47,741 bases of DNA. Origin: Candidatus Thermoflexus tengchongensis. Lineage in GTDB: Bacteria; Chloroflexota; Anaerolineae; Thermoflexales; Thermoflexaceae. This document shows, piece by piece, positions 5,772 through 44,367 of the stretch (within the stretch, counting starts at the first letter, position 1; every line of letters starts with the position of its first letter). Made by a program: the position numbers and the translations under genes. The notes under the pieces are model-generated. The model was not told where the DNA came from, searched no databases, and saw only the letters and a program-made list of their open reading frames with translations. The stretch covers positions 1 to 47,741 of the forward strand of contig JAEVEX010000058.1 in NCBI GenBank assembly GCA_016842085.1, written 5' to 3'.

Positions 5772-5800
5772 ATTATAACACGCCCGGCGCGGAGCGTCCC
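5772..5800 (-). promoter_or_regulatory. Possible promoter for the 2-oxoacid dehydrogenase operon
   Basis: On the minus strand 5772-5777 reads TATAAT. A weak -35 (GGGACG at 5795-5800) lies 17 nt upstream. The predicted leader would be about 210 nt. The -10 is perfect but the -35 matches at only 3 of 6 positions, so this is tentative. Confidence 0.35.
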
Positions 5801-6025: not shown

Positions 6026-6055
6026 TTGACCGATGGCTTTTTTCAAGGGTATCAT
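6026..6055 (+). promoter_or_regulatory. Sigma70-like promoter for the giant Rhs gene
   Basis: TTGACC at 6026-6031 and TATCAT at 6050-6055 are separated by 18 nt. Transcription would begin near 6062, leaving a leader of about 28 nt that carries GGAAGGAGG ahead of the ATG at 6090. This arrangement also argues against an earlier in-frame start at 6033. Confidence 0.55.
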
Positions 6056-6089
6056 ATTCCCAGAACCCGGAGCGGGAAGGAGGGCCCGG

Positions 6090-12000: not shown

Positions 12001-12269
12001 GAGTGGCGACAAGCATCAAAACGCTGGATCTTAATGCTCCAACCTACCAGAATATCAGTATGCTGACAAACAAGGTGCAGGGCTATATCAACACACTGGC
12101 TAATTTCCAAGGAGCTCGACATATACAAGCGCATATGATTACAGGGCGTGAATTGCTCTTGGCTGTCCCGAGTGGTGCGGGCACGCAGGCACAATGGGCT
12201 GCGCTTCAGGCATTGCAGCAATATGCAGCGAACCTGGGCGTGATACTGACCATTGTTCAGATCCCATGA
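6090..12269 (+). CDS. Giant secreted Rhs/YD-repeat polymorphic toxin with predicted nuclease tip
   Basis: A 2059-aa protein. Residues 1-20 look like a Sec signal (hydrophobic PVVALVLIGLLG). A Pro-rich spacer follows at about 50-72. An SpvB/TcaC-like region lies near 230-260 (GGIRPTLGLAYNSRRIDG). YD repeats run from about 760 to 1720, interrupted near 970-1105 by a jelly-roll-like insert that could bind carbohydrate. RVYLPLIAK lies near 1580. The Rhs core end has DRRFTGQRW and NRYAYARNNPLAYVDDTGH (to about 1860). A hydrophobic pretoxin segment precedes a toxin domain from about 1944 to the end. That domain has RGQLIHRMLG, NFPVIDRF and ATSIKTLDL, resembling PD-(D/E)XK-type nuclease toxins of contact-dependent systems (from memory). 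The family builds a YD shell around the cleaved toxin. The ATG at 6090 is chosen for its RBS, signal peptide and promoter spacing. The presumed immunity gene starts 20 nt after the stop. Confidence 0.9.
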   Translation: MARMRLPVVALVLIGLLGQPLSPLPRSPVASPPAATLSKPVAAPRFQSPLPPPTPPAPAPSPPPPLPLPPPEEIPVTPGTAARFLHGRVTVEVPPAAPIARLRLAMREQRRLGAGQAGIALAFDLQAADGTGAPLSRFAAPLTITLRLGEWVNWSSRPDWLRPWVGYFDEAARRWVPISPTFVDEAAGILAFPTDHLSVFGAGTQGVTVSGWVLNFNDTRVDRFAGALVWAYPLDLPPGPGGIRPTLGLAYNSRRIDGVLTWAQSDGVGWGWSLDVAEIMWRNVRRCWDGAHYYLCWDAVPLLVLNGEALKLVPETALPGNVQYLGPGSEYHFRTEDERFWRIVWKPGPENGWWEVTLPDGTRYRLGTTPDSRQTLRGSIGQTTGVATVRWRVKEIVYPAGVTAAFTYTEQTLSQQCDLFRAAGLMGSNENCTGDDPNSERASYLTQIEYPGTRVRIVWDRRWNGNGPNDGFGAQAYRGDFTDAGMAAIFWQTDAVQRVVVERQRGDGTWAVVREIRFTYGTFIPEDETNKRLRILTQIQEWAPEGSAWKALPPLTFGYTGYPNKDWCNVFAQPCSEWDQARFFYPRLTRLDNGYGGRIEIGYETPDGGHWQAKNYRVAWRTVTDGLGGGWQEAYAYSGDPRGRCYLFWGEDQTGCTWPDAFTGPTGGPFLGYREVSVAIRDLAGSLVRSEWNRFALPEGPTNDPWPVRGRMRQAALSDPDGRVLQTVDIAYGISPTAGGAHFVFPQRQDTATDGRTARTEWRYDAYGNVTAVFEHGFLDVSGDERTTHRGYAYNLSAWILDKVAWERVYEGLTEDIGGTALQTETRFFYDGASSFTTPPTKGLLTRVDRGKEGWGWVTEQAAYDAYGNPTVLTDARGFTTTFGYDPSGVYRVWERNALGHTTRYEYYGVNESDPGAGRGPVGALKRVVDPNGAATAYTYDPFGRLVGEIHPGDSWTLPTRQWVYGTPRPAALFPNGDFEADGGWASYGSGIAWGYAAGAGRNGSRALWIRTTQEGDHWVGNFSSSWQAGAPYWIGAWVRGSGGVCLTVSARAGWEQAAACGTATTDWQWLEGRIVLPPDATQFHLLIRTGVGEVWIDEVRIGPPLTPWRIERWDREVSGCSGCVQPTFTFYNGLGWKLQERIEKDNGTLQSVRNWVYDPLGRVMREDLPVEELFSWEFLRPTGWESRPATRTTYDALDRPLTITAPDGSVTRYAYADGGVLALDPNGHQTLRCTDGLGRLAEVYTFQGAFSAPTLAAQPLAVARYRFNALDRLTDVRDPLGNRIRIAYDPLGRKVRMDDPAMGTWFYRYDPAGNLLAQVDGRGWAVNFYYDPLNRLKGKTYTPGISDGAAYVPPPDPGPSGYAVGYAYDEPGYGASLGRKTRAWTADGIQRTWAYDPRGRVTTATLTIDGQPFLQTFAYDAMDRLTRRVDPDGEALQLAYGPHGWPTALTGWGTYAQNATYNAAGQLTGLSLLGGGVLNRTYDPRTLRVTRIQGPGLDLGYAYDPAGNVLRITDTARSEVWTFAYDELDRLIGMSGPVSGTWTLDEGGRWLQRTEGAQTWTYDYGDPAPPSAPPGPYRVYLPLIAKSPTVRCLDEAWHAAWVERDTGRSWRLLSVSDGTTLGYDGNGNVLTRTVGGAEWRYVYDAENRLAEVWRGAERVAAFRYDAEGNRTVREVAGVRTVAVDDGYEVRGGVVRKVYRLGGEAVAVREGGGVWAVVGDHLGSLAVLAQGGSPAGLTRYLPYGAIRLETGLFPTDRRFTGQRWEVVLGLYDYRARFYDPTLGRFLQPDSLVQADARNPTPYLPLAVSYAHPKTLEQWNQLQQSRWQPKSQAPSTPAVLDPQFLNRYAYARNNPLAYVDDTGHIAWWVVGGIFGGVVGLGAYALTHRDRFDWREAALWTAGGAVVGATFGAGAQWVAGALGTAEAATTAATAATATSPWALPALQRGQLIHRMLGANLPPNFPVIDRFVNGVATSIKTLDLNAPTYQNISMLTNKVQGYINTLANFQGARHIQAHMITGRELLLAVPSGAGTQAQWAALQALQQYAANLGVILTIVQIP

Positions 12270-12289
12270 CCTGATGGAGGAGAAGCGGC

Positions 12290-12748
12290 ATGATCGAGGT
12301 GGCTGAAGTCTTCATCTGGGGCAACAAAGCGTATCTCCCCGTCATTGGCAAGACGGAGGTTGGTTTTTTCTGGGAAACCGGTCCACTCCTGACCGCGGAA
12401 CTCACCGTCGATGCGTTGACCACAGCCCTGGAGGAGATTGTTAGAATCGGCAATCCTCCGATGCGCCATCCAACCCAGGCCGAGTTTCGCCGATTGACGC
12501 CGGTTCAGAAGGCCATTGGTATACGCAGCTGGAAGAAGATGGCTCAGGCGGGGGTCATTCGCTGTGGAATCTGGTGGACAAAGGACAGGATCCTGGTGGC
12601 CTTTTCACCTCGGGAGGCAAAGGACATTCAAGAGATCGATTTTGCACATCAGAAGGAATTCCCCCTCGACACCCCGCTGAGAGCTATTGCCGAATTCATT
12701 CTACAAGAAGTGTATGCTCGGCGAGCCGGGTCAACCGAGAAGGCATAA
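12290..12748 (+). CDS. Presumed immunity protein for the first Rhs toxin
   Basis: A 152-aa soluble protein beginning MIEVAEVFIWGNKAYLP, with a mixed alpha/beta pattern and no signal or membrane segment. GGAGGAG lies about 8 nt before the ATG, and only 20 nt separate it from the toxin stop. The immunity role is inferred from this fixed position, as for rhsI or cdiI genes. I recognise no named immunity family. It would act in the cytoplasm by binding the nuclease tip. Confidence 0.6.
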   Translation: MIEVAEVFIWGNKAYLPVIGKTEVGFFWETGPLLTAELTVDALTTALEEIVRIGNPPMRHPTQAEFRRLTPVQKAIGIRSWKKMAQAGVIRCGIWWTKDRILVAFSPREAKDIQEIDFAHQKEFPLDTPLRAIAEFILQEVYARRAGSTEKA

Positions 12749-12777
12749 ATTCTAAACCCCCGTTGGATAGTGAGTAG

Positions 12778-12879
12778 AGGGATGAGCAGAGTGTAGTGCG
12801 AGGGTATGAGGTGGTAGGGCGTGGGATCCAGGTAGCGGAAGGGGTGTTTCAGATCAGCAATGCCCTCGTAAGGAGGTGA
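12778..12879 (+). pseudogene. Stub of a deleted toxin C-terminus
   Basis: A 33-codon open stretch encodes a tail ending RGIQVAEGVFQISNALVRR and then TGA. It stops 3 nt before the ATG of the TPR gene, with the gene's RBS (AAGGAGGTGAGGG) inside the last codons. This is the same spacing seen for the other toxin/immunity pairs in the array. It is therefore best read as the last residues of a lost toxin whose core and most of whose toxin domain were deleted. No core homology remains. Confidence 0.4.
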
Positions 12880-12882
12880 GGG

Positions 12883-13455
12883 ATGGAGTGGGAGCTGGTG
12901 GAGAAACTGATTCGGGGGAACGAGTTGCGACTCCAGAAGGGCTTTGAAAAAGCGCTGGAGATCTATTTCGGACTTCCCAATCGGCTCCCGGAAGATTCAG
13001 AGCTGCGAGCCTACATATATGCGCTGATCTCAAGCTGTTACTTTCATCTGAATCGTTACTATGAGGCGGTGGCTTTCACCGAGAAGGCCGTGGCGCGAAT
13101 GCCGGAGGAAGTCCGATGGCACGAACAGTTGGCCGAATATTGCTGGCTGGGGACACTGGATCTGGAGCGGGCGGCTCAGGAAGTGCGCAAGGCCATCCAG
13201 CTGAACCCGAATTATGTGGGAGCCCTGGTGCTGGGGGCTGCCATTTATGGGGAGCCGGAGGAGGTGATCCGCCTGGAGGAGGCCATCGAGTGGATGGAGC
13301 GAGCCGTGCAGCTGGATCCGAATAATCCAGACTATTACATTCGTTTGGGCGCTCTTTATCATGATGCAGGTCGGGTGGAGGAAGCAAAGCGAGTGTGGAT
13401 GAAGGCCCTTTTGTGCAGGGTTCCCCTTCGAGCGGAATCCGTGGGATGGGTTTGA
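12883..13455 (+). CDS. TPR-repeat protein, probable orphan immunity gene
   Basis: A 190-aa protein of helical TPR-type repeats. Clear units include AIQLNPNYVGALVLGAAIY, AVQLDPNNPDYYIRLGALY (about 143-161) and an earlier AVARMPEEVRWHEQLAEYC. There is no signal peptide. A strong AGGAGG lies 7 nt before the ATG. It follows a 33-codon toxin stub and precedes a restarted Rhs core, exactly where the other cassettes carry immunity genes. I infer an immunity gene kept after loss of its toxin. A general TPR scaffold role is the alternative. Confidence 0.6.
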   Translation: MEWELVEKLIRGNELRLQKGFEKALEIYFGLPNRLPEDSELRAYIYALISSCYFHLNRYYEAVAFTEKAVARMPEEVRWHEQLAEYCWLGTLDLERAAQEVRKAIQLNPNYVGALVLGAAIYGEPEEVIRLEEAIEWMERAVQLDPNNPDYYIRLGALYHDAGRVEEAKRVWMKALLCRVPLRAESVGWV

Positions 13456-13497
13456 GAACATCTTCTCGGGGAGTAAGGGGGCGAAGCGCTTTTCCGC

Positions 13498-14439
13498 AGC
13501 CTCACCGTCCTGGCCCAGGGGGGAAGCCCGGCGGGTGTGGCCCGGTATCTCCCGTATGGCGCCATTCGTTTTGAGACCGGCCTCTTCCCCACCGACCGCC
13601 GCTTCACTGGCCAGCGGTGGGAGGCGTCGCTGGGACTCTATGACTACCGGGCGCGGTTCTACGACCCCGCCCTGGGCCGCTTCTTGCAACCGGACCCCAT
13701 CGTGCCTGAGCCGGGGAACCCGCAGGCCCTCAACCGGTATGCCTACGTTTACAACAACCCGTTGCGCTACCTGGATGATGGGGGGCATCTCCCGATCGTC
13801 CCCCTCCTGGTGGCGGGGGCGATCATCGCCCTCAAGGTCATCGACTACGGCTGGACGGCGTGGGATGCCTCCCAGAGCCTCCGGGTGCTGCAGGATCCCA
13901 ACGTCTCGGAGGCCGCGAAGGCGGAAGCCGCGGCGAACCTGGCCTTGATAGCGGCCACTGAAGCCGCCGAGCCCGACGAGCTACTACCCATAGCCCTGCC
14001 CCTGGACGACCTGGCCCGCAAAGGCCTCCTGAAGGCAGGTCGGGAGATAGGAGAGCAAGCAACGCAACAGGCCGTGGAGGAGGTCGCATCTGCGGCCATC
14101 CGGAAGCCGCCCATTGTCATCGGGGAGAATATGGAGCGAGTGCGAAGGTACGCTCAGCAAATCGGCGGTGAGACTATTGAGGATTTCATCCCAAAGGGCG
14201 AATGGACTTTCGAGAAAAACCGAATCTGGATTCGGCAAATGCGGGAAGAAGGTCGTCTCATTGTGGATATCGGTCCAGACTTCAGTCGGCGGGTGCAACG
14301 CTGGAAGGAGGGGGAAGTTCCATGGTCCTGGGTTTATAACATGGAGCGGATGGAGTTGAAGGGATACGAAGGATATCGGAAAATCTTTCAGCGTTTTGGG
14401 AAGTGGCGTGGAGGAGTTACGGGCATAGATTTTGACTGA
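13498..14439 (+). CDS. Orphan Rhs tip 1: core end, pretoxin and GENMxRV-type toxin
   Basis: The frame restarts inside the Rhs core at SLTVLAQGGSPAG, copying the first Rhs gene from about nt 11260. It continues through [43 protein letters not shown] and YLDDGGH. The pretoxin (VPLLVAGAIIALKVIDYGW, then LPLDDLARKG) is nearly identical to tip 6. The toxin domain follows: GENMERVRRYAQQIGG, then IWIRQMREEGRLIVDIGPDF, then MERMELKGYEGY. I associate this pattern with C-termini of LXG/Rhs-type toxins but cannot name its activity. It has no credible start: the first GTG is at 13537 and has no RBS. It is probably a silent donor cassette rather than an expressed gene. Confidence 0.75.
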   Translation, partial: SLTVLAQGGSPAGVARYLPYGAIRFETGLFPTDRRFTGQRWEASLGLYDYRARFYDPALGRFLQPDPIVPEPGNPQALNRYAYVYNNPLRYLDDGGHLPIVPLLVAGAIIALKVIDYGWTAWDASQSLRVLQDPNVSEAAKAEAAANLALIAATEAAEPDELLPIALPLDDLARKGLLKAGREIGEQATQQAVEEVASAAIRKPPIVIGENMERVRRYAQQIGGETIEDFIPKGEWTFEKNRIWIRQMREEGRLIVDIGPDFSRRVQRWKEGEVPWSWVYNMERMELKGYEGYRKIFQRFGKWRGGVTGIDFD

Positions 14440-14450
14440 GGAGGTGAGCG

Positions 14451-14885
14451 ATGAGCGTTTTGCTTTCCCAGTTTTTCCTGGAGACTGTTCGGTCAGAGTT
14501 CGCCTTCCTGGTGGAACAGTACGGCTTCTCTGGACCTTATTCAGACTTTTCTTCGTATGTAGACAAAGTTTGGTTTATGGGCAAGAATCTGGCAATCGAG
14601 TTCACTTTCGAATGGCGGGATCAAGATATCTCCTGTCTCATTGTTCGCCTGGAAGATGGGAAAATGCCATCGGGCTGGGCTGTAAATGAGAAGGGGGAAC
14701 GAATTCGGATTTATTTGGCGGTTTGGCTTCAAGAACGAGGCATTCATGAGCCATTATTTACCAAAATAACATCAAAAGATATAGAAGAAAAGATTAAAAC
14801 ACGCATTAAAGATTACGCCAAAATATTGAAGGAATATGGTCATGATATATTACGAGACCAAGCAGATGTTGTGTTTGGATCGTGA
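14451..14885 (+). CDS. Presumed immunity protein of tip 1
   Basis: A 144-aa soluble protein beginning MSVLLSQFFLETV, acidic, with a Lys-rich C-terminal helix (KIKTRIKDYAKILKEYG). GAGGAGGTGAG lies just upstream of the ATG. The gene starts 11 nt after the stop of tip 1. Its DNA is clearly more AT-rich than the core, especially from 14740 to 14880. The function is inferred from position alone; I do not recognise the family. Confidence 0.55.
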   Translation: MSVLLSQFFLETVRSEFAFLVEQYGFSGPYSDFSSYVDKVWFMGKNLAIEFTFEWRDQDISCLIVRLEDGKMPSGWAVNEKGERIRIYLAVWLQERGIHEPLFTKITSKDIEEKIKTRIKDYAKILKEYGHDILRDQADVVFGS

Positions 14886-14906
14886 AGCGACAAGTCACCC
14901 TAGGGC

Positions 14907-15030
14907 ATTGCCTGCAACCGGATCTGCTGGTGCCGGGGCTGGGGAACCCGTAGGACTTTAACAGATACACATATGCCCCCAATAATCCCTGCGCTACACC
15001 GACCCCAGCGGCCACGTTCCGGTCATCCTG
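14907..15030 (+). pseudogene. Degenerate Rhs core end before tip 2
   Basis: The stretch is recognisable as the core end (LGHCLQPDLLVPGLGNP, then NRYTYAPNNP). It carries an in-frame TAG at 14951-14953 and has lost one base near 14990 relative to the other copies, so the reading frame shifts before the PSGH codons. The frame after the shift continues into the tip 2 ORF. It cannot be translated as one protein, so this cassette could be revived only by recombination downstream of the damage or by gene conversion. Confidence 0.7.
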
Positions 15031-15753
15031 GTGATGATGGGGATCGGTGCAGTCAGCGGTGCCCTCATCAACTACGGCTTCCAGGTGGTGGCCAACATCC
15101 GCCAGAACGGCCTCACCGTCCAGGCCTTTACCCACGTCAATTTGGCCTCCATCGGTGCCAGCGCCCTCGCCGGAGCTGTGGGTGGAGCTACATTCTATGG
15201 AGCCAGCGCCGTGCTGGGAACAGGCTTGTGGGGAATGATAGGTGCAGGCGCCTTCAGTGGGGCAACCTCCGGACAAGTCGCACGAGCAACGGAGAACCTC
15301 CTGACCGGAAGGCCGGTGGGGGAAGGATTGGGGGATCCCGCCGAACTGGGACGGGATGCCCTGATCGGTGGCCTCAGCGGCGGGGTCTTTCACGGTGTGG
15401 ATCGGATGGTAATGCGAGCGGCATTTCGGGGAACCTACGTCCGCTATATCTCCGAGGGAGAACTTCAAGCCATCCAGGAAACCGGATTGCTCCGGGGAGG
15501 GAGGCCAGGTAAAACTTATTTTACCACCGATAAATTTGAGGCAGGAGAAGCCTTAAGTCGCTTGGCCTTAAAAGAAGCCCCGATGTATCGAATAGAGTTT
15601 GAGATTAGTTCCCAGGTTCGCATCTATGGTCCTCAGCGAATTCGGCCTTGGTTCTGGCCACGAGATCCTGGATTCCGGGCTGGCTGGGGGATTGAATATT
15701 GGTCCCCAGATCCTGTTCACCCCCGCCTTTTACGCATTGAGCGTTTGAAATAA
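15031..15753 (+). CDS. Orphan Rhs tip 2: pretoxin plus ADP-ribosyltransferase-like toxin
   Basis: A 240-aa frame that continues the degenerate core in a shifted frame. The pretoxin has NGLTVQAFTHVNLA, AGAVGGATFYGAS and ATENLLTGRPVGEGLGDP. It is homologous to the tip 4 pretoxin, Gly/Ala-rich and probably membrane-active. The toxin part begins TYVRYISEGELQAIQETGL, then GRPGKTYFTTDKFEAGEA and MYRIEFEISS. From memory this resembles HYD1-type ADP-ribosyltransferase-like toxin domains, which would modify a target with NAD. The ATG at 15031 lies within the pretoxin and has no RBS, so it is unlikely to be a genuine start. Confidence 0.62.
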   Translation: MMMGIGAVSGALINYGFQVVANIRQNGLTVQAFTHVNLASIGASALAGAVGGATFYGASAVLGTGLWGMIGAGAFSGATSGQVARATENLLTGRPVGEGLGDPAELGRDALIGGLSGGVFHGVDRMVMRAAFRGTYVRYISEGELQAIQETGLLRGGRPGKTYFTTDKFEAGEALSRLALKEAPMYRIEFEISSQVRIYGPQRIRPWFWPRDPGFRAGWGIEYWSPDPVHPRLLRIERLK

Positions 15754-15765
15754 GGGGATATAATT

Positions 15766-16011
15766 ATGGGAACAAAATCCCAGTTAATTATCGTAGAACC
15801 TTATGATGAGTTTGAAATCATTTATGGAGAAGTTTCTCGAATTCCTTTCCTGTTTCGAGCCACAGATGGCCGTGTTTTCTATTTATGGCCCTACGGATTG
15901 CTTGATCAATTGCTAAATTGGTGGCTAAATGGAATTATGGATGTGATGATAATAGATCATAAAACTAAGAAATGGATAGGTAGGGGAGATTTAAAGAAAA
16001 TTAAAATGTAA
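15766..16011 (+). CDS. Presumed immunity protein of tip 2
   Basis: An 81-aa protein beginning MGTKSQLIIVEPYDEF, with a hydrophobic Trp-rich middle (LLDQLLNWWLNGIM) and a Lys-rich tail. It starts 12 nt after the tip 2 stop. The upstream AAGGGGATA is a fair RBS. The DNA is markedly AT-rich compared with the flanking cores, suggesting separate ancestry. The immunity role rests on position only. Confidence 0.5.
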   Translation: MGTKSQLIIVEPYDEFEIIYGEVSRIPFLFRATDGRVFYLWPYGLLDQLLNWWLNGIMDVMIIDHKTKKWIGRGDLKKIKM

Positions 16012-16021
16012 TGTAAGGTTC

Positions 16022-16939
16022 TTGGCGGATCGCCGCTTCACTGGCCAGCGGTGGGAGGCATCTCTGGGCCTGTATGACTACCAGGCGCGCTTCTATGACC
16101 CGGCCCTGGGCCACTTCCTCCAGCCCGATCCCCTGGTCCCGGAGCCGGGGAACCCGCAGGCCCTCAACCGGTATGCCTATGTTTACAACAACCCCTTACG
16201 CTACACCGACCCCAGCGGGCATTGCGCCCTGCTGGAGGAGCAGGCCAGCGGGCTCTGTGTTCGCTTCACCCCCGAAGGCACCCTGCACATCGTCCAGGGC
16301 GGCTCGGTCTTCGTCAATTGGGTGGAAGTGGCCCTCGCTAATGCCCTGCTCTCCGGAAACCCCCGTTACCTGGAGAACCTCCCCAATGGAGCCGGATGGG
16401 CCATCGCCCCATCCCTTTCCCGGGTGAGGACAGAGCTGGAAGAAGCCAATGGGGAGGGATCCACCAGGGGGCTGGGGTTGGATCCCTTATGGCTGTTGGG
16501 GCTGGCAATGGCAGCGGGGAAAGCGGGGGAAGATCCTGCAGGTCCGCCCCCGGTATGGCTCGAGCTGGTCCCCCCGAAATACCGGGAGACCGTAGCCCGA
16601 CCCTTCCAGGGCACCCCCCAGGTCATCACCCTCCAGGAAGACTTGATCGTCTATCGCCACTGGGGAGGCGAGGCTCGCGAGACAGGATCTCCCTGGTTTT
16701 CTCCGAAACCCTACGTTCGACCAGGGAACGCTCGGCGTTATCTGGCTCTCCCACCATGGAATACAGCAGAGAGGATCTCGGTGTTCCGAATTCCAGCCGG
16801 CACCACTGTTATCATTGGAAGGGTAGCTCCGCAAGTTGAAAGCTATGGACCTTACGCAACTGGAGGAGGTATCCAGATTTATCTTCCCCGCCCTGAAGCG
16901 GCAGTTTTAATTGGACCCCTGGATCTAACTGGACGCTAA
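16022..16939 (+). CDS. Orphan Rhs tip 3 with unassigned toxin
   Basis: It restarts at DRRFTGQRWEASLGLYDYQ about 13 nt after the previous immunity stop. It runs through [36 protein letters not shown], then a linker and a C-terminal domain: VYRHWGGEARETGSPWFS, PGNARRYLALP, then TTVIIGRVAPQ and YATGGGIQIYL. The WGG...SPWFS pattern with a terminal GGG-Q strand looks like an ADP-ribosyl/RES-fold toxin, but I would not insist on this. The only upstream start is a TTG at 16022 without an RBS, so it is probably not expressed by itself. Confidence 0.68.
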   Translation: MADRRFTGQRWEASLGLYDYQARFYDPALGHFLQPDPLVPEPGNPQALNRYAYVYNNPLRYTDPSGHCALLEEQASGLCVRFTPEGTLHIVQGGSVFVNWVEVALANALLSGNPRYLENLPNGAGWAIAPSLSRVRTELEEANGEGSTRGLGLDPLWLLGLAMAAGKAGEDPAGPPPVWLELVPPKYRETVARPFQGTPQVITLQEDLIVYRHWGGEARETGSPWFSPKPYVRPGNARRYLALPPWNTAERISVFRIPAGTTVIIGRVAPQVESYGPYATGGGIQIYLPRPEAAVLIGPLDLTGR

Positions 16940-16949
16940 GGAGGCAAAC

Positions 16950-17243
16950 ATGGAGGAAGAGCTCAAATTAAAGATAAAAAAAGCGATTTATGAAATTGAT
17001 AAGCGAATAATTGAGCCAAATTCCCCCAAATTATTGATATATATGCGTGAGTGGTTGCAGCAAATGATGGATGAGCTTGAGAAGCCAACACCCAACTCTC
17101 AGAAGTTACTTGGATTGGCCAGCGGGTTAGGACGGGGAGTTACAGATGATTATGAATTCTCATCAGGGCCGTTAGGAAGCCAATTATTGGAGATTGTTTC
17201 TGATATCGTTCGCATGTATGATCCTCGATTCCAAAATAAGTAA
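16950..17243 (+). CDS. Presumed immunity protein of tip 3
   Basis: A 97-aa, largely helical, charged protein (MEEELKLKIKKAIYEIDKR at the start). AAGGAGG lies 5 nt before the ATG. It starts 10 nt after the toxin stop. The gene is AT-rich. The next Rhs core copy begins only about 5 nt after its TAA. The function is inferred from position in the array. Confidence 0.52.
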   Translation: MEEELKLKIKKAIYEIDKRIIEPNSPKLLIYMREWLQQMMDELEKPTPNSQKLLGLASGLGRGVTDDYEFSSGPLGSQLLEIVSDIVRMYDPRFQNK

Positions 17244-17248
17244 TTTAT

Positions 17249-18139
17249 ATCTACGATCCCATCCTGGGCCGCTTCCTGCAACCCGACCCCATTGTGCCCG
17301 AGCCCGGCAATCCGCAGGCGCTCAACCGGTATGCCTATGTCTACCACAACCCCCTGCGCTATACCGATCCCAGCGGCCACTGCCCCTGGTGCGTGATCAT
17401 CGGATTTGGGGCCCTGATCGGCGCGGGGGTGAGCTACGGCGTTCAGGTGGCCGCGAACATCAGCCAGAACGGCCTCACCGTCCAGGCCTTCACGAATGTC
17501 AACTGGGCCGTCGTGGGGGCTGGAGCTGTGGCCGGGGCGGTGGGAGGTGCGACGTTTGGTTTGGGCACCGCGGTGTTCGGGACCGGGGCGGTGGGCACCG
17601 TGGCCGCTGGGGCTGTCAGCGGGGCCGCGGCCGGACAGGCGGCCCGGGCGACCGAAAACGTCCTCAGCGGACGAGCGATCGGGGAAGGCCTGGGAGATCC
17701 AGGAGATCTCCTGCGGGACGCAGCAATCGGCGGGGCGCTGGCCGGCATCGGATATGGGATGGGGCGGCTGGCATCGCCGGCAGCGGCGGAGGCGGCCGGA
17801 AGCCTGGAACCCCCGATGCTGCGAGCGGGACGCCTGGCCCACCAGCGGTCAGGAGTCAGATATCTGGAGGGGATTCCCCCGGAGCAGCGGCCCTTCGTGG
17901 ATATCGATCAAACCTTCGTGGACCTGACCGGCCGGCGCTTCCGCCCCGATGTCGTCAACCACGTCACCGGCGAGGTGGTGGAATTCAAACCCCAAAGCTG
18001 GTTAAAAGATGCGAAATTAAAAGCTAAAGCGGAAAACCAGGCAAAGAGTTATGCAGCTCGCTTGAACGCGTTATATGGGGACTGGCGCCGGTTGGAGGGG
18101 CTGCCGGAATACTGGTGGCGGGTGGAGTATTACCGCTGA
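17249..18139 (+). CDS. Orphan Rhs tip 4 with REase-like nuclease toxin
   Basis: The core restarts late, at IYDPILGRFLQPDPIVPEP, and runs through [19 protein letters not shown]. The pretoxin (NGLTVQAFTNVNWA, AGAVGGATFGLG, ATENVLSGRAIGEGLGDP) is homologous to tip 2. The toxin begins near MLRAGRLAHQRSGVRYL. It has FVDIDQTFVDLTG and then FRPDVVNHVTGEVVEFKP, a strand-turn-strand with Asp and Glu-x-Lys spacing expected of a PD-(D/E)XK nuclease, followed by a Lys/Ala-rich helix. A GTG at 17294 is the first formal start, without a clear RBS. It is probably a donor cassette. Confidence 0.7.
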   Translation: MYDPILGRFLQPDPIVPEPGNPQALNRYAYVYHNPLRYTDPSGHCPWCVIIGFGALIGAGVSYGVQVAANISQNGLTVQAFTNVNWAVVGAGAVAGAVGGATFGLGTAVFGTGAVGTVAAGAVSGAAAGQAARATENVLSGRAIGEGLGDPGDLLRDAAIGGALAGIGYGMGRLASPAAAEAAGSLEPPMLRAGRLAHQRSGVRYLEGIPPEQRPFVDIDQTFVDLTGRRFRPDVVNHVTGEVVEFKPQSWLKDAKLKAKAENQAKSYAARLNALYGDWRRLEGLPEYWWRVEYYR

Positions 18140-18151
18140 GGAGGCGAAGGA

Positions 18152-19072
18152 ATGAACGAGATCCGGGCGGTAGGAATGGTGATCTACACCTACGAGAGGC
18201 TGGAGCAGCGACTGGATCCCCTATGGGACTGGCTGCATCACGTGGAACAGTGGGCCGGCCGATCTTATGCGGAATTCAACTTCGCTTCCCAGGCCAGGGA
18301 GTCGCTACGAGTCTGGAAAGCCACCTCCCAGAATCTGGAGAAACTCTACCAGCGATTGCAAACAGAGCAACCATGGTCTGAAGTCCTCTTCGGATGGCCA
18401 AGAGGAGCGTTGAGGGATGAGACTATTTTAAAGCAAGGCTTACTCGTTGCTATCAAATCCCGTCCTCAACCGGAGCGGGGGATGGAAAGCTATCGCACCC
18501 CCTCCTATGTTTATCTGCAAGCTCATCCAGATGTGATCCAAGCAAGCACAGGAGGCGTGGAGGGATTTGTGAGGCTGGGGATGGCCGCCTGGGAGATCGC
18601 GGAAGGCGTATACGGCTTCATCGATGTGGAAACCGGCATCCCCCTCCAGGATGATATTTTTCGCAACGCCATCCATCTCTTTGACAGCACCGTGCCCCCC
18701 GAATATCACCGGGAGTTCCGGGCGTGGCAGGAGCTGATGCCCAAACTGGACAAGCGGGCCTGGAAGGCCTTCTGGGGCAACTTCCTGGGAGCGGAACATC
18801 TGCGCCAGCTGGGCGGTATCCAGGAATTGCGGCGCGCCGATCCCCTTTACCAGCTGCGGCCGGAATACCTGGAGCAGGCCTACCAGCGGGGGAAAGAGAT
18901 CCTCCGCGCCAGTAAGAGCTATGTCGGCTGGTATGAGCTGGCCGGAGGCGGGGTGCTGTTGACCCTTTCCGCTTCGCCCCTGGAGGGGTTGGAAAAGGAG
19001 GTCCAGGAACGGCGCGAGCGGTTGCAAGCGGTGCTGGCGCCCATCGCCCTCTCGGTGACACCAGAGGAATAA
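18152..19072 (+). CDS. Presumed immunity protein of tip 4 (FWxNFxG family)
   Basis: A 306-aa soluble protein, large for an immunity gene. It starts MNEIRAVGMVIYTYERLEQ, with GAGGAGG about 9 nt upstream, 12 nt after the toxin stop. The C-terminal half has EGVYGFIDVETGIPL, KAFWGNFLGAEHLRQLGG and GGGVLLTLSASPLEG. These align with the tip 7 immunity gene ([38 protein letters not shown]). The two are therefore one family serving two different REase-like toxins. I do not know its published name. Confidence 0.6.
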   Translation: MNEIRAVGMVIYTYERLEQRLDPLWDWLHHVEQWAGRSYAEFNFASQARESLRVWKATSQNLEKLYQRLQTEQPWSEVLFGWPRGALRDETILKQGLLVAIKSRPQPERGMESYRTPSYVYLQAHPDVIQASTGGVEGFVRLGMAAWEIAEGVYGFIDVETGIPLQDDIFRNAIHLFDSTVPPEYHREFRAWQELMPKLDKRAWKAFWGNFLGAEHLRQLGGIQELRRADPLYQLRPEYLEQAYQRGKEILRASKSYVGWYELAGGGVLLTLSASPLEGLEKEVQERRERLQAVLAPIALSVTPEE

Positions 19073-19094
19073 GCGCCCAGGGATCGTTGCCTTC

Positions 19095-19994
19095 TTCCCC
19101 ACCGACCGCCGCTTCACCGGCCAGCGGTGGGAAGCTTCCCTGGGACTCTACGATTATCGAGCGCGGTTCTATGACCCCGCCCTGGGCCGCTTCCTCCAGC
19201 CCGATCCCCTGGTCCCGGAGCCGGGGAACCCCCAGGCCCTCAACCGGTATGCCTATGTCTACAACAACCCCCTGCGCTACACCGACCCCAGCGGCCACTG
19301 GCTGGAGACCGTCTGGGACATCGCCAACATCATCTGGGATATCTACGAAATCCGCAAGGACCCCGGCAATGGGTGGAACTGGGGTGCGCTGGTGGTGGAC
19401 GTGGGGGCGGCGATCTTGCCGTTTGTGCCCGGCGGTGTCGGCGCCGTGGTGCACGGCGGCAAGGCAGCCCGGTCGGCCGTGGAAGCCGCCCGCCACGCCG
19501 ATGAGGTGGTGGATGCAGCCCGGGTGGTCGCGGAGGCAGCCACCCACGCCGATGAGGCTGTAGATGCGCTACGGGCAGCCGAACGCCTATCCCAGGCGGG
19601 GATTAGCCTGGAGCGGTTCCGCAGCGTCGGACGGGAAAGCATCCCTCGCGTCCTGGAGGCATTCGGCGATGCGATCCGACCGATGGGTGACATCCCGGAG
19701 GCATTCCGAGGTCGGCGAGTGACAACCCTGGGGCGGACGTGGGATATTGAGGCAGCAAAAGAGCTGGGCGGCTTTCGGGTGCTGGATGATCCCAACTGGA
19801 CAATCGAGCGCAACTTCGAGTGGCTGAAGGAGGCAATTGAAAATGGGGATGTGTTCTACCTCGCCTCTCCTGTGACGGAAGCGAACTTATGGAATCCTAA
19901 AAGAGGAGACGTCACGGTCTATTTGCGTGAACTTGACATGCTATTGCAAGCAGGATATCGGCGGATAGGCGATTACTTGATTCCACCCCAATAG
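19095..19994 (+). CDS. Orphan Rhs tip 5 with toxin of unknown activity
   Basis: The core restarts at FPTDRRFTGQRWEASLGLYDY about 20 nt after the tip 4 immunity stop and runs to [18 protein letters not shown]. The pretoxin differs from the other tips (DVGAAILPFVPGGVGAVVHG, then Ala/Asp-rich helices). The terminal domain has VTTLGRTWDIEAAKELGG, then ENGDVFYLASPVTEANLW, then VTVYLRELDMLLQAGYRR. I recall FYLASPVT...LRELxxLxxxGY as a recurrent uncharacterised polymorphic-toxin ending, but its reaction is unknown to me. There is no plausible start codon with an RBS near the 5' end. Confidence 0.68.
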   Translation, partial: FPTDRRFTGQRWEASLGLYDYRARFYDPALGRFLQPDPLVPEPGNPQALNRYAYVYNNPLRYTDPSGHWLETVWDIANIIWDIYEIRKDPGNGWNWGALVVDVGAAILPFVPGGVGAVVHGGKAARSAVEAARHADEVVDAARVVAEAATHADEAVDALRAAERLSQAGISLERFRSVGRESIPRVLEAFGDAIRPMGDIPEAFRGRRVTTLGRTWDIEAAKELGGFRVLDDPNWTIERNFEWLKEAIENGDVFYLASPVTEANLWNPKRGDVTVYLRELDMLLQAGYRRIGDYLIPPQ

Positions 19995-20007
19995 GAGAGA
20001 AGAGTAT

Positions 20008-20562
20008 ATGCCAGAAATGATAACAATACACGAAGCTGCCAAAATTATTAATCAGATTCCCGCTAATCATTATTGGGAAAAGAAATTACCATCTAAAGAG
20101 GATAATCTCATCTGCAAAATCTGCAGCGCCTATCAGAAAGCCTCTTCAGGTGAGCAACAAAAATTCAGGAAAGATTTGGAGACAAATGGATGGCAAGTGC
20201 TATGGTCATTCCTGAGGCGGGCAGCGATGTTAGGGGCGCGTGAGAGAATAACCCAATGGATTGTGTGTGGACTCATCAGCTTGACGATTTGTGCAGAGGA
20301 TCCTGAAACGGAACCCTATGATGTGCTCATAGATCTGGCAATTCTCTATCACAGCGCGTGCCAAGTGGGAGACCCCCGTCGGATCTTTGAAGCCGGTGTG
20401 CAACATGTGGAAGACGAGCGCATCCGACAGTTGATTCTGGGCTTTCTCGACCGCGATCCTCGAGATCAACGTCCAGAAGCAATGGGATGGGAAATCATTC
20501 AAGGACCGAGCGGCCTCATCTACCGGTTTGACGATCAGCCTATCCCGGAAGGTCATCTCTGA
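20008..20562 (+). CDS. Presumed immunity protein of tip 5
   Basis: A 184-aa soluble, helical protein starting MPEMITIHEAAKIINQ, with a HEAT/armadillo-like feel (AVLYHSACQ-type helices, DERIRQLILGFL). TAGGAGAGAAG precedes the ATG. It starts 13 nt after the toxin stop. The 5' half is AT-rich. No family is recognised; the role is inferred from position. Confidence 0.55.
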   Translation: MPEMITIHEAAKIINQIPANHYWEKKLPSKEDNLICKICSAYQKASSGEQQKFRKDLETNGWQVLWSFLRRAAMLGARERITQWIVCGLISLTICAEDPETEPYDVLIDLAILYHSACQVGDPRRIFEAGVQHVEDERIRQLILGFLDRDPRDQRPEAMGWEIIQGPSGLIYRFDDQPIPEGHL

Positions 20563-20610
20563 TTCACAGATCCTGGCACTTTAACAACTCAAGCGCGCCG
20601 TTGCGGCTCC

Positions 20611-21453
20611 TTCCCCACCGACCGTCGCTTCACCGGCCAGCGGTGGGAGGCGTCGCTGGGGCTCTACGACTACCGGGCCCGCTACTACGACCCCGCCCTG
20701 GGCCGCTTCCTCCAGCCCGACCCGCTGATTCCGCAGCTGGGGGATGTCAGGGCGTGGAACCGGTATGCCTACGTTTACAACAACCCGCTGCGCTACCTGG
20801 ATGACGGAGGGCATCTCCCGATCGTCCCCCTTCTGGTGGCCGGGGCGATCATCGCCCTCAAGGTCATCGACTACGGCTGGACGGCGTGGGATGCCTCCCA
20901 GAGCCTCCGGGTGCTGCAGGATCCCAATGCCTCGCAGGCCGCGAAGGCGGAAGCCGCCGCCAACCTGGCCCTGATCGCCGCCACCGAGGCCGCTGAGCCC
21001 GATGACCTGCTCCCGGTCGCCCTGCCCCTGGATGACCTGGCCCGGAAGGGGATCTTGAAGGCAGGTCGAGAGGTGGCCGAGGAAGCCGCCGAGCGGGCGG
21101 GGAAGGAGGCGGGCGAGGAGGCTGGTCGCCTCATCCGCCACCATATCGCCACCAACAAGAACTGGATCCGAGACCCGAGATGGTCGGAGCGATTCCACAA
21201 ACTCTTTGCCCGGGGTGGGATGACCCTGGAGGATGCGGCGAACATCGTGGAATTGCCGGCTGAGCTGCACAAGGGTCCTCATTCGCAGGCATATCATCAG
21301 TGGGTGTACCGGCGGCTGCAGGAGGCGATTGCGGGGTTAGATGATCCAACGAAGGTTCGTGCCCGGTTGGAAGCGGAATTGCGAGCCATTGCGGAGGAAC
21401 TGAAGGCCCACCCGGAATACTTGCGGAATCCGCCGATGGGAGGAGGGCGGTAA
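20611..21453 (+). CDS. Orphan Rhs tip 6 with AHH-type HNH nuclease toxin
   Basis: The core restarts at FPTDRRFTGQRWEASLGLYDY. It has a variant hinge (PLIPQLGDVRAWNRYAYVY) and YLDDGGHLPIVPLL, then the pretoxin almost identical to tip 1. The toxin begins after AGRLIRHHIATNKNWI. It continues FARGGMTLEDAANIVELP and HKGPHSQAYHQWVYRRL. The double His, the second HKGPH and the YHxxV are the hallmarks of the AHH family, an HNH/EndoVII-type nuclease. It would cleave nucleic acid in a target cell. Upstream starts lack an RBS. Its stop TAA overlaps the ATG of the next gene (TAATG). Confidence 0.78.
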   Translation, partial: FPTDRRFTGQRWEASLGLYDYRARYYDPALGRFLQPDPLIPQLGDVRAWNRYAYVYNNPLRYLDDGGHLPIVPLLVAGAIIALKVIDYGWTAWDASQSLRVLQDPNASQAAKAEAAANLALIAATEAAEPDDLLPVALPLDDLARKGILKAGREVAEEAAERAGKEAGEEAGRLIRHHIATNKNWIRDPRWSERFHKLFARGGMTLEDAANIVELPAELHKGPHSQAYHQWVYRRLQEAIAGLDDPTKVRARLEAELRAIAEELKAHPEYLRNPPMGGGR

Positions 21454-22058
21454 TGCGCTACTATGAGTGGACAGCGAACTCAGAGGGCAATTGCGTAGTT
21501 CGGGACTTCAAAGTTCGGGGATGGGAAGATGAGTTCAAGTTGCTGTGGAGGCTGGAGGAGGGGCGTCCACTGAGGGAAAGCGAATGGGACGCGGAGGCTG
21601 TGGCTTATTGGGCGGAGGATGCTCCTTTAACGGATTTGCCTTTCACCGTCCCTGATTTCGTGCTCCTTTCTCCTCGTCTGAAAGAACTTCTGGAGAGTTT
21701 GGGACTGGGCCCTGAGGTTCAGTTTCTGCCCATTCGGGTGATCGGGGAGAAGAGCGGACGGGAGGTGGGTGTTTACTATGTGGCTAACTTCCTGCGGCGC
21801 ATCCCTTGCTTGGATCTGGAACATTCCATATATGGCCGATATGGGGATCATCCGGAGGATTTCCGGGTTTTTCCTGAGAAGATTGGACAGATCCGCCATG
21901 TCTTGAAAGCAGTGTTGCGGCAAGAGGCAATTGGCGATGCCTGGTTGTTTCGGGTGGATGAGTGGGAGTATATCGTGGTGATCCATGAGGAGGTGAAGCG
22001 GGCGATGGAGGAGGCTGAGATCACCGGGTGCTGGTATCAAGAGTTAGAGGTGGTGTAG
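21453..22058 (+). CDS. Presumed immunity protein of tip 6 (Imm11/DUF1629-like)
   Basis: A 201-aa soluble protein starting MRYYEWTANSEGNC. Its middle has FTVPDFVLLSPRLKELLESL, then VQFLPIRVIGEKSG and IPCLDLEHSIYGR. This order (last strand, SxxLKxLLE, PVxV, then LDxxxS) resembles Imm11/DUF1629 or the related Imm43 families. From memory these often sit beside AHH toxins. The ATG overlaps the toxin stop (TAATG), the tightest coupling in the array, and GGAGGAGGG sits in the toxin tail as RBS. Confidence 0.62.
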   Translation: MRYYEWTANSEGNCVVRDFKVRGWEDEFKLLWRLEEGRPLRESEWDAEAVAYWAEDAPLTDLPFTVPDFVLLSPRLKELLESLGLGPEVQFLPIRVIGEKSGREVGVYYVANFLRRIPCLDLEHSIYGRYGDHPEDFRVFPEKIGQIRHVLKAVLRQEAIGDAWLFRVDEWEYIVVIHEEVKRAMEEAEITGCWYQELEVV

Positions 22059-22083
22059 GTTCAGCCCTTTAACAACCAAATAC

Positions 22084-22950
22084 CGCCGCTTCACCGGCCA
22101 GCGGTGGGAGGGGACGCTGGGCCTTTATGACTACCAGGCGCGCTTCTATGACCCGACCCTGGGCCGCTTCCTGCAACCGGACCCCATCGTGCCCGAGCCT
22201 GGCAACCCGCAGGCGCTCAACCGCTACGCCTACGTCTACAACAACCCGCTGCGCTACACCGACCCCAGCGGGCACGTCGTCCAGCTTCCCTGCCCCTGGT
22301 GCGATCGCCCCTGGATCTCCACCCAGGGCTGGCCAGGCCTCGCCGTCGGTCTGGCCAAAGGCGCCTGCGCCGTCCTGGGCTGTCAGATCGACCCCGTCAC
22401 TGGCCTCCTCTCGGGACCTTCCTATGCAGAATGGCTCCAGGCTCAGACCCTGGGCCTGGGAGGGCTGGCAAGCCCGGTCCAGACCCCCAGTGGCTGGCTG
22501 AAGGCCAGTGGAGTCGAAGTGGCCGCCGAGCTTCGAGCCCTGGGCGCACGAGGCGTGCCGGGCGTGGAGCGCCTGGCGGCGATGATTGAAGGAGGCCTGC
22601 GCGGGGCTGTCTTCCAGGGCCAGCGAGCCCTCCATTACGCCGAACAACTCCTGGGCGTCGAGGTGGAAATCGCATTTCCCAAAGGCCTCGGGCGTGTGGA
22701 CCTCCTCCTCACCGGCAACCGCATCGTCGAAACCAAAGCCTGGGAAAATTGGGAAAAACTGGGGCCTGAAATTCGGAGAAGCATCCTCAGGCAATTTGAG
22801 GAGCAGATGACGAAATACTTGAGTGATGCACGTTATACTGTGCTGGTCGAGTTCAAGGGGAGGATCCCAGAAGAAGCGCTCCAGGTGCTTCAGAAGCTGA
22901 CTCAGGACCCCCATTACACAGGGCGTCTGAACTGGACCACGGTTCCATAG
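22084..22950 (+). CDS. Orphan Rhs tip 7 with REase-like nuclease toxin
   Basis: The core restarts at RRFTGQRWEGTLGLYDYQ, runs through [17 protein letters not shown] and [19 protein letters not shown], then a linker with CPWC and a Leu/Gly-rich stretch. The toxin is at the C-terminus: HYAEQLLGVEVEIAFPKG, LGRVDLLLTGNRIVETKA, a helix, then YTVLVEFKGRIPEEAL. Asp in RVDLL and Glu-Thr-Lys in VETKA fit a PD-(D/E)XK nuclease core. The first formal start is a GTG at 22189 inside the core, so expression is doubtful. Confidence 0.72.
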   Translation, partial: RRFTGQRWEGTLGLYDYQARFYDPTLGRFLQPDPIVPEPGNPQALNRYAYVYNNPLRYTDPSGHVVQLPCPWCDRPWISTQGWPGLAVGLAKGACAVLGCQIDPVTGLLSGPSYAEWLQAQTLGLGGLASPVQTPSGWLKASGVEVAAELRALGARGVPGVERLAAMIEGGLRGAVFQGQRALHYAEQLLGVEVEIAFPKGLGRVDLLLTGNRIVETKAWENWEKLGPEIRRSILRQFEEQMTKYLSDARYTVLVEFKGRIPEEALQVLQKLTQDPHYTGRLNWTTVP

Positions 22951-22966
22951 CTGTCGGAGGAAATCA

Positions 22967-23743
22967 ATGCTCCCGCGAGATTGGGTGGAAGCCCTCGAGC
23001 TGAATCTAAGCTTTTGCGAGCGCCTGGATCCTGAACAAGGCGCTACTCAGCTGATTCGCCTGATTGATCAGCATGGAGGCAAGTTCTTGAAATTGAATCG
23101 CCGCGAAGTGGAACCTGAGCCCCTGGCAGATATGGTCAATCTCTTCGTTCCCATTGAGCACCATCTGCTCCAGCCTGATGCCATGACAGATCCCGAAAGG
23201 GGAAAAGGACAGGCTTCGTTAAGCTTCGTGCCGGAAAGCCTGTACGTGAGCATCCGCCAGAACGTTTCTTTCCCGGATCTCCAGCGGGTGGATCCAGTGG
23301 CTCTGGGCCTGCTGACCCTCGGCCGGCTCCTCTACCCGGATCTGCGCCCCATATATGGATGGATCGATGAGCCCAGTGGGAATATCCCAGAGACCTCAGA
23401 AATCGCCTCCACCCAGCTCCGATATATCTTCTGGGCCAACTTCTGGGGACCAGCGTATGTGGAGCGGTATGGGCGGGATTTTCTGCGAGGGGCGCCAGGC
23501 TGGCGGGTGGAGGAGCTCGAAGACGGGGGGATCCTGTATGTGACCACCGCCAGCTATGTGGAGTGGTGGCTGATGACCCGCCTGGACCATCTGGATCCGG
23601 AGCGCCCGCGGCTGCGGCGGTGGCTGCTCGAACGGCGCGGGCAGCTGGCCGTGCAGCGGGCCGCCATCCTGGGATATTTCCGGGCGCGCATTCCGGAAAT
23701 CGAGCTGTATTGGGCAAAGGTCGATCTGGATTGGCTTCCCTGA
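22967..23743 (+). CDS. Presumed immunity protein of tip 7 (FWxNFxG family)
   Basis: A 258-aa soluble protein starting [16 protein letters not shown]. The ATG is preceded by CGGAGGAAATCA and lies 16 nt after the toxin stop. The C-terminal half ([47 protein letters not shown]) is related to the tip 4 immunity gene. Its TGA at 23741-23743 is also the first three bases of the following core scar (TGATCCC), so the scar may have trimmed the original C-terminus. Confidence 0.6.
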
Positions 23744-23855
23744 TCCCACCCCGGTCCCGGAGCCGGGGAACCCGCAGGCGTTGAACCGGTATGCCTATGT
23801 TTACAACAACCCGCTGCGCTACACCGACCCCAGCGGGCACTGGCTGGAGGAGCGC
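23742..23855 (+). pseudogene. Empty Rhs core scar closing the array
   Basis: A short core copy without a toxin. It reads [32 protein letters not shown], then about 200 bp of unrelated sequence. It has no RRFTGQRW part, pretoxin or immunity gene. It is open in frame with the MBL-fold gene downstream, but this is probably chance. It marks the 3' end of the array and could serve as a recombination landing site. Confidence 0.7.
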
Positions 23856-24001
23856 AAAAAGCCCCTGGCCCATCTCGGCGTGGCTCCATCGGGCATCCCC
23901 AGATTCCAGGGAACAGCCGGCTGCGCAAGGGAGGAGCTCGCCGCTGGTCAACGCCAGGGGTCCACCGCGGCAAGCCCACCTGTGATACGATTAATCCGCG
24001 C

Positions 24002-44263: not shown

Positions 44264-44367
44264 GCGCAAAGCCCTTGGAGATCGGGCCCCGCTGGTCCCA
44301 TCCCGGCTCGAATGGAACAGCGCTCAGGGGCTGAACCCCGTTTCCACTCGGGAGGTTCACCCGCCTT

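What the first reader, a model, noticed from the sequence alone, without database searches (positions are those of the whole stretch)
12270..23860. Array of displaced Rhs toxin/immunity tips behind a complete Rhs gene
After the complete Rhs gene, the same core end ([31 protein letters not shown]) restarts at about 13.5, 14.9, 16.0, 17.25, 19.1, 20.6, 22.1 and 23.75 kb. Each of the first seven restarts leads into a different C-terminal domain, followed at 0-16 nt by a different small gene. None of the tips has a credible start codon. This matches the orphan-tip arrangement described for enterobacterial Rhs and CDI loci, but here it is unusually long and in a probable Chloroflexota. It looks like an archive for toxin switching in a monoderm-type thermophile, where delivery of such proteins is not well described.
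Basis: partly seen in the sequence, partly recalled or inferred. Interest (0 to 1): 0.9.

Follow-up and report, generated by a model that had tools for sequence, protein, structure and literature searches.

The report
Rhs toxin gene with spare-tip array
A hot-spring bacterium (Thermoflexus) keeps, behind a complete surface-toxin gene, seven spare toxin tips each with its own antidote gene; this is a long example of a known arrangement, and relatives carrying the same tips on their working gene show that the spares are preserved and reused.

Summary
Behind an intact Rhs gene (start probably 6090, end 12269), the Rhs core end recurs eight times. Seven copies lead into distinct toxin domains, each followed within -1 to +16 nt by an immunity gene. 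Core copies are 75-89% identical DNA. The immunity genes have ATG starts and nearly all a good Shine-Dalgarno; the tips have neither. One restart (T2) has a stop and a frame change in its own core, and the last is a bare remnant. The host is a Thermoflexus sp. (Chloroflexota).

A second locus in the same genome, two loci in a complete congener and several relatives hold the same tips in other orders; several tips that are orphans in one locus sit on the full-length gene in another. Orphan toxins are under purifying selection (dN/dS 0.08-0.28), like the Rhs backbone (0.22). Two congeners have the site without any Rhs. No T6SS, VgrG or WXG100 gene was found; the Rhs N-terminus looks like a Sec signal.

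This is the orphan rhs-CT/rhsI array known from enterobacteria and surveyed as cassettes in many phyla. It most likely works as a toxin-silent, immunity-expressed reservoir reshuffled by homologous recombination over evolutionary time, not as a fast switch.

The parts
6090..12269 (+). Full-length Rhs/YD-repeat polymorphic toxin gene (ORF from 6033; probable start 6090, about 2059 aa), with hydrophobic signal-like N-terminus
   Evidence: RHS_repeat PF05593 6.7e-48; SD AAGGAGG before ATG 6090; similar basic-then-hydrophobic N-termini ending LLGQP or alike in 7 loci
11679..12266 (+). Active toxin tip A: CDI toxin EC869-like nuclease, joined at about 11466 to a divergent core end
   Evidence: PF21111 6.8e-12; PDB 4g6u EC869 CdiA-CT 4.7e-9, 4zqu 1.5e-9
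12290..12748 (+). Immunity gene of tip A
   Evidence: SD GGAGG, ATG; 82% identical in G006
12883..13455 (+). TPR protein gene of unknown role (possible extra immunity or accessory gene)
   Evidence: TPR_2 4e-17; SD AAGGAGG
13477..14439 (+). Orphan tip T1: longest core, linker LPIVPLLVAG, toxin of unnamed family
   Evidence: Rhs_assc_core 1.3e-21; homologue is the active tip of C88, orphan in G004a and G051
14451..14885 (+). Immunity gene of T1
   Evidence: AGGAGG SD; pairs with T1 in G051, C88 and G004a
14905..15753 (+). Orphan tip T2: degenerate core with TAG 14951 and a 1-nt deletion; intact linker and toxin from 14986
   Evidence: 85% identical intact tip in G004b
15766..16011 (+). Immunity gene of T2 (weak SD)
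   Evidence: 81% identical beside T2 in G004b
15995..16939 (+). Orphan tip T3; possible TNT-like NAD glycohydrolase
   Evidence: Rhs_assc_core 1.5e-20; TNT PF14021 only 0.028, below cut-off; two alleles in G004a
16950..17243 (+). Immunity gene of T3
   Evidence: AAGGAGG SD; 67% identical in G004a
17240..18139 (+). Orphan tip T4: truncated core, linker shared with T2; nuclease-like toxin by motif only
   Evidence: Rhs_assc_core 4.4e-11; G001b carries the same linker and tip start
18152..19072 (+). Immunity gene of T4
   Evidence: GAGGAGG SD; weak TsiV 0.0059, below cut-off
19059..19994 (+). Orphan tip T5: WLE linker and toxin of unnamed family
   Evidence: Rhs_assc_core 2.2e-21; G004a orphan, G081, and behind a WXG100-like N-terminus in G196
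20008..20562 (+). Immunity gene of T5
   Evidence: similar proteins follow the T5 toxin in G004a, G081 and G196
20563..21453 (+). Orphan tip T6: T1-type linker joined to an AHH nuclease
   Evidence: PF14412 AHH 3.6e-15; AHH tip on two other linkers in G001a and G001b
21453..22058 (+). Immunity gene of T6, Imm11
   Evidence: PF07791 2.5e-18
22048..22950 (+). Orphan tip T7; nuclease-like toxin by motif only
   Evidence: Rhs_assc_core 3.6e-21; cassette 22084-23822 is 91.8% identical in C88
22967..23743 (+). Immunity gene of T7
   Evidence: SD CGGAGG; 93% identical in C88
23749..23849 (+). Terminal core remnant without a tip
   Evidence: 92% to T5 core; same junction after T7 immunity in C88
5790..23981 (.). 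Extent of the locus relative to the rhs-less site in congeners (approximate edges)
   Evidence: In G005 and G001 the E1 and MBL genes are 672 and 362 nt apart; homology stops near 5790 and resumes near 23981

Best explanation
This is a Sec-exported, WapA/Rhs-type polymorphic toxin locus of Thermoflexus with a reservoir of displaced toxin/immunity cassettes. The full-length gene makes one surface toxin whose current tip is an EC869-type nuclease (inferred from homology). The seven orphan tips are not translated (inferred from missing starts and SDs), while their immunity genes probably are (inferred from strong SDs), giving immunity to seven further toxins. Modules move between the active position, the array, a second locus and other species by homologous recombination or gene conversion in the repeated core and, at a second level, in the shared linkers between core and toxin. 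Movement is supported by comparative sequence; the recombination mechanism itself is inferred. Each replacement at the active tip pushes the older tip and antidote downstream; lost or broken cores mark the oldest remnants.
For: Anatomy. Toxin and immunity families: PF21111, AHH, Imm11; AHH with Imm11 is a known pairing (PMC3482391). Exchange: T1-type tip active in C88, orphan here, in G004a and in G051; a WLE-linker nuclease tip active in G051, orphan in G004b and G030; EC869-type tip active here and in G004b on a different linker (by eye for G004b); Ntox44 orphan in C88. Cassette unit: T7 with its immunity gene matches C88 from core to next core at 91.8%, and the sequences differ outside. Mosaic identity: the G004a active gene and an orphan lead are 100% identical over about 350 nt, then fall to 72% and rise to 96%. 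Selection: orphan toxins dN/dS 0.08-0.28, Fisher p between 8e-10 and 1e-34 for five of them and 4e-8 for T7. Vehicle: signal-like N-termini; no T6SS sheath, VgrG or WXG100 found. Complete genome G004 has two arrays, so the pattern is no assembly artefact.
Against: No expression data. Core copies are diverged (75-89%), with exact matches to the active gene of at most 42 nt, so recombination inside this array should be rare. No recombinant intermediate was seen. dN/dS may partly reflect earlier time on the active gene. Most orphan toxins have no confident family.
Confidence: 0.85

Rival explanations
1. A graveyard: displaced tips are leftovers of past replacements with no present use and are decaying.
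For: T2 core carries a stop and a deletion, T4 core is truncated, the last copy is bare; C88 has a truncated T2 linker and a probably broken GIY-YIG tip, G006 has a tip with stops.
Against: All seven window toxins are open, and pairs that are orphan in both genomes show dN/dS 0.08-0.28 at dS 0.2-1.8; several are active in relatives.
Confidence: 0.12
2. A polyimmunity array: only the immunity genes are selected, and toxins are carried along.
For: Strong SDs on immunity genes, none on tips. E. coli EC93 makes its orphan CdiI but apparently not the orphan toxin (PMC3150448).
Against: Toxin moieties are as constrained as, or more constrained than, the immunity genes (T5 tox 0.28 vs imm 0.44; T3 0.12 vs 0.16). 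Polyimmunity loci as defined have no toxin cassettes between the immunity genes (PMC3482391).
Confidence: 0.1
3. A fast switching archive like silent pilin cassettes, with frequent conversion of the active tip within a clone.
For: Mosaic identity and a 347-nt exact match between active gene and an orphan lead in G004a; 143 nt in C88; Salmonella recombines main and orphan rhs in culture (PMC3967940).
Against: In this window the active gene shares at most 42 exact nt with any orphan; simple recombination would delete intervening cassettes; no invertible or site-specific element was identified.
Confidence: 0.06
4. Orphan tips are independently expressed toxin-antitoxin modules inside the cell.
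For: RHS elements were reported to act as type II toxin-antitoxin modules in Salmonella (PMC7043789, abstract).
Against: No start codon with SD found for the tips; promoter-like sites 8 found versus 4.5 (sd 2.3) in shuffles, not informative.
Confidence: 0.04

Closest known systems
Orphan rhs-CT/rhsI and cdiA-CT/cdiI arrays (Yersinia, Dickeya, E. coli; PMC3150448)
   Same: Core or VENN restarts, no translation start on tips, adjacent immunity gene, cassette homology running from one conserved motif to the next, tips active in other strains
   Different: Those are Proteobacteria, with CdiB or other Gram-negative delivery; here a Chloroflexota member, with an additional layer of shared linkers
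Salmonella Typhimurium rhs main/orphan locus (PMC3967940)
   Same: Full-length gene followed by an orphan tip sharing core DNA; recombination can load the orphan
   Different: There a single orphan with 95% identity over 522 bp and switching observed in culture; here seven orphans at 75-89% and no switching observed
WapA of Bacillus and Streptococcus (PMC12704120)
   Same: YD-repeat protein with signal peptide and variable C-terminal toxin in a monoderm
   Different: No wall-binding module was found by Pfam in the window protein; wall passage unknown
Polymorphic toxin cassettes surveyed across phyla (PMC3482391)
   Same: Stand-alone toxin/immunity cassettes recombining to the 3' end of the full gene; Chloroflexi listed as rich in such systems
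   Different: The passages read do not describe a Thermoflexus locus; within-genus exchange, selection on orphans and the rhs-less site are shown here

Membership tests
Rhs/YD-repeat polymorphic toxin | RHS repeats followed by Rhs_assc_core and a variable C-terminal toxin | tested here: met
   PF05593 6.7e-48, TIGR03696, PF21111 tip
Rhs/YD-repeat polymorphic toxin | Tip varies between otherwise homologous genes | tested here: met
   N-terminal parts 69-82% identical between loci with different tips
Orphan rhs-CT/rhsI array | Displaced tips retain core DNA and lack initiation signals | tested here: met
Orphan rhs-CT/rhsI array | Each tip followed by an immunity gene with its own start | tested here: met
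   conserved pairing of T1, T2, T3, T5, T6 and T7 in other loci
Orphan rhs-CT/rhsI array | Orphan toxins are toxic and neutralised only by the cognate immunity protein | not testable with these tools
   needs expression experiments
Orphan rhs-CT/rhsI array | Same tips found on full-length genes elsewhere | tested here: met
   T1-type on C88; WLE nuclease tip of G004b on G051
T6SS Rhs effector | T6SS apparatus and VgrG vehicle in the genome | tested here: not met
   no PF05943 or PF04717 match in the 95% complete genome
WapA | Sec signal peptide | tested here: inconclusive
   signal-like basic plus hydrophobic N-terminus in 7 loci, read by eye only
WapA | Cell-wall binding module | tested here: not met
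   no such Pfam domain in the full-length protein
CdiA (two-partner secretion) | Filamentous haemagglutinin repeats and CdiB partner | tested here: not met
   protein is RHS-repeat, no haemagglutinin family in the Pfam scan; CdiB itself was not searched

The most novel reading that the evidence does not exclude
The array is a working, two-level cassette archive: tips are reloaded often in living populations by conversion at either the core or one of a few shared linkers, so that linkers and toxins are mixed independently, and cassettes pass between families of the class through DNA uptake (a ComEC gene is present).
Probability: 0.15. Interest if true: 0.65.

Novelty: new member of a known kind. 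Interest (0 to 1): 0.38.

Why it matters
It extends the displaced-tip arrangement to a thermophilic Chloroflexota genus with enough related loci to measure it. Silent toxins are shown to be under purifying selection comparable to the backbone, cassettes are seen to move as core-to-core units, and linkers act as a second exchange point. That makes the question of whether orphan tips are reservoirs or debris testable with sequence alone. It also supplies several toxin/immunity pairs with no named family (T1, T2, T5, and probably T4 and T7).

Tried and rejected
AlphaFold2 models of the T1 and T5 toxin domains were low confidence (pLDDT 69.5 and 60.9) and Foldseek gave no match below E 0.1; nothing was concluded. 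PDB sequence searches with T1, T2, T3, T5 and T7 gave nothing credible. TNT for T3 and TsiV for T4 immunity stay below the curated cut-offs. T4 and T7 immunity proteins are not demonstrably related. PADLOC gave only weak PDC-M20B hits on T4 immunity. Promoter and terminator counts did not stand out from shuffles. An assembly artefact was rejected because complete genome G004 shows the same layout twice. A first dN/dS of the Rhs body was out of frame and was replaced. Paper searches for Thermoflexus with Rhs, and for Rhs with Chloroflexi and orphan, found none. A wider search for the T7 toxin in 199 genomes of the class found it only in this genome.
Full report
Setting. The window is a whole 47,741-nt contig (C11) of a 3.89-Mb, 95% complete genome bin in 100 contigs. 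The closest named Rhs relative is a Thermoflexus sp. bin (SKYG36, the record behind G002, same genus), so the host is a Thermoflexus species, phylum Chloroflexota.

Observation. A full-length Rhs gene (ORF 6033-12269; the better start is ATG 6090 with AAGGAGG upstream) is followed by eight restarts of its core end at the stated places. Core copies in full register are 75-89% identical at DNA level, and changes between them are mostly synonymous (dN/dS 0.02-0.18). Seven restarts lead into open toxin frames of 212-252 residues after the core, each followed at -1 to 16 nt by a small gene. The toxins are mutually unrelated except for shared linkers (T1/T6, T2/T4) and a faint T1/T5 resemblance; the immunity proteins are unrelated to one another. 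All immunity genes and the extra TPR gene start with ATG, nearly all behind AGGAGG/GGAGG-type sites, while none of the five candidate tip starts examined has a convincing site. Two blemishes were missed: T2's core has an in-frame TAG at 14951 and a 1-nt deletion, so it cannot be read into its tip, and the last copy leads nowhere.

What the tips are. The active tip matches the EC869 CdiA-CT toxin (PF21111, 6.8e-12; PDB 4g6u, 4.7e-9). T6 is an AHH nuclease with Imm11, a pairing listed by Zhang and colleagues (PMC3482391). C88 carries an Ntox44 orphan (1.6e-16). T3 may be TNT-like (0.028, below cut-off). T1, T2 and T5 have no named family; T4 and T7 look like restriction-type nucleases by motif only. 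The T5 toxin with its immunity gene recurs in a different family of the class (G081, 80-82% identical) and behind a WXG100-like N-terminus in G196 (the WXG100 reading is by eye). This argues that it is a real toxin/immunity pair carried by more than one vehicle.

Comparison of loci. The same genome has a second Rhs locus (C88, 54-67 kb). Its backbone is 91% identical to the window gene over 3.66 kb, but its active tip is of the T1 type, which is an orphan here; it has an Ntox44 orphan, the T7 cassette, a GIY-YIG-like tip and a truncated T2 linker. The complete genome G004 has two arrays: active HNH-like tip (by eye, no Pfam match) then T1, T3, T3', T5, T2, remnant; and active EC869-type tip then T2, a WLE-linker nuclease tip, remnant. 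In G051 that WLE-linker nuclease tip is on the full-length gene and T2 and T1 are orphans. AHH occurs on three different linkers, EC869-type on two, T5 toxin on two. Order and active tip therefore change between loci and relatives, and linkers and toxins are exchanged separately.

Units and marks of recombination. The T7 cassette matches C88 from inside its own core to inside the next core (22084-23822, 91.8%), and the flanks differ beyond both cores. This is the kind of unit described for VENN-bounded CDI cassettes (PMC3150448). The divergence of the T7 toxin between the two loci (28 of 172 synonymous sites) is close to that of the backbone (194 of 937). One reading is that T7 was inherited when the locus duplicated and nearly everything else has been replaced since; this is inference. 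Identity is patchy: G004a's active gene and an orphan lead run 97, 100, 100, 100, 89, 98, 93, 77, 72, 90, 96% per 100 nt, a sign of recent exchange.

Selection. Pairs that are orphan in both genomes give toxin dN/dS of 0.18 (T7), 0.10 (T2), 0.12 (T3), 0.28 (T5), 0.13 (T1) and 0.08 (T6), with no stops; the backbone gives 0.22. Silent toxins have thus been kept functional over most of their history, either by repeated returns to the active position or because each was displaced only recently. NG86 estimates at dS above 1 are rough.

The locus as an insert. In congeners G005 and G001 the genes flanking the array (a dehydrogenase E1 component and a metallo-hydrolase) are 672 and 362 nt apart with no Rhs; homology to the window stops near 5790 and resumes near 23981. 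G008 has the E1-Rhs junction at 94% identity. The locus has been gained or lost as a block; the direction was not resolved.

Delivery. Seven homologous genes share a basic then hydrophobic N-terminus, read by eye as a Sec signal. No T6SS sheath, VgrG/baseplate-V or WXG100 match was found in the genome. The protein is WapA-like in being a probably exported YD-repeat protein, but no wall-binding module was found. How it crosses the wall and enters targets is unknown.

Mechanism and verdict. The evidence fits a toxin-silent, immunity-expressed cassette reservoir serving one exported Rhs protein, reshuffled by homologous recombination at core and linkers. Shown: anatomy, exchange between loci and relatives, purifying selection, the rhs-less site. 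Inferred: expression states, recombination machinery, toxicity and neutralisation, Sec export. Rapid switching is not supported in this window because the active gene shares at most 42 identical nt with any orphan. The kind is known from enterobacteria (PMC3150448, PMC3967940) and from surveys (PMC3482391). Array length is not a record: eleven pairs are reported in E. coli EC869 (PMC3150448), and other genomes of the class have multi-copy arrays. This is a new member of a known kind, valuable mainly because the related loci make the reservoir hypothesis measurable.

Noticed in passing
window 36309-43472 and 44335-44709: A second, dissimilar Rhs gene (2387 aa, 32 RHS repeats, DUF6531) is followed by one degenerate core copy with an internal TGA, so it may have lost an orphan tip of its own.
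   Followed up: partly
L033 and L035 (G004:C1:1758001-1778000 and 3072001-3092000, reverse strand): Both full-length rhs genes of the complete genome G004 are each split by a frameshift in the repeat region, while window and C88 copies are intact; sequencing error and real inactivation were not separated.
   Followed up: no
L092 (G196:C88): The T5 toxin and immunity pair occurs behind a WXG100-like N-terminal domain, i.e. on another delivery vehicle.
   Followed up: partly
L032 / G051 contig (Anaerolineae RSWS10): This contig is assigned to a different family but carries a Thermoflexus-like Rhs locus with T1 at 91% aa identity; horizontal transfer or mis-binning.
   Followed up: no
L068 and G008:C43: Two contigs of G008 break at the same Rhs residue (163), suggesting two collapsed Rhs loci and arrays missing from short-read bins.
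   Followed up: no
L048 7190-7384 (G000:C31): A lone core fragment without backbone or tip elsewhere in the genome.
   Followed up: no
window 12883-13455: A TPR gene with a strong SD sits between the active immunity gene and T1; its role is unknown, and distant relatives lie near Rhs fragments in G014.
   Followed up: partly
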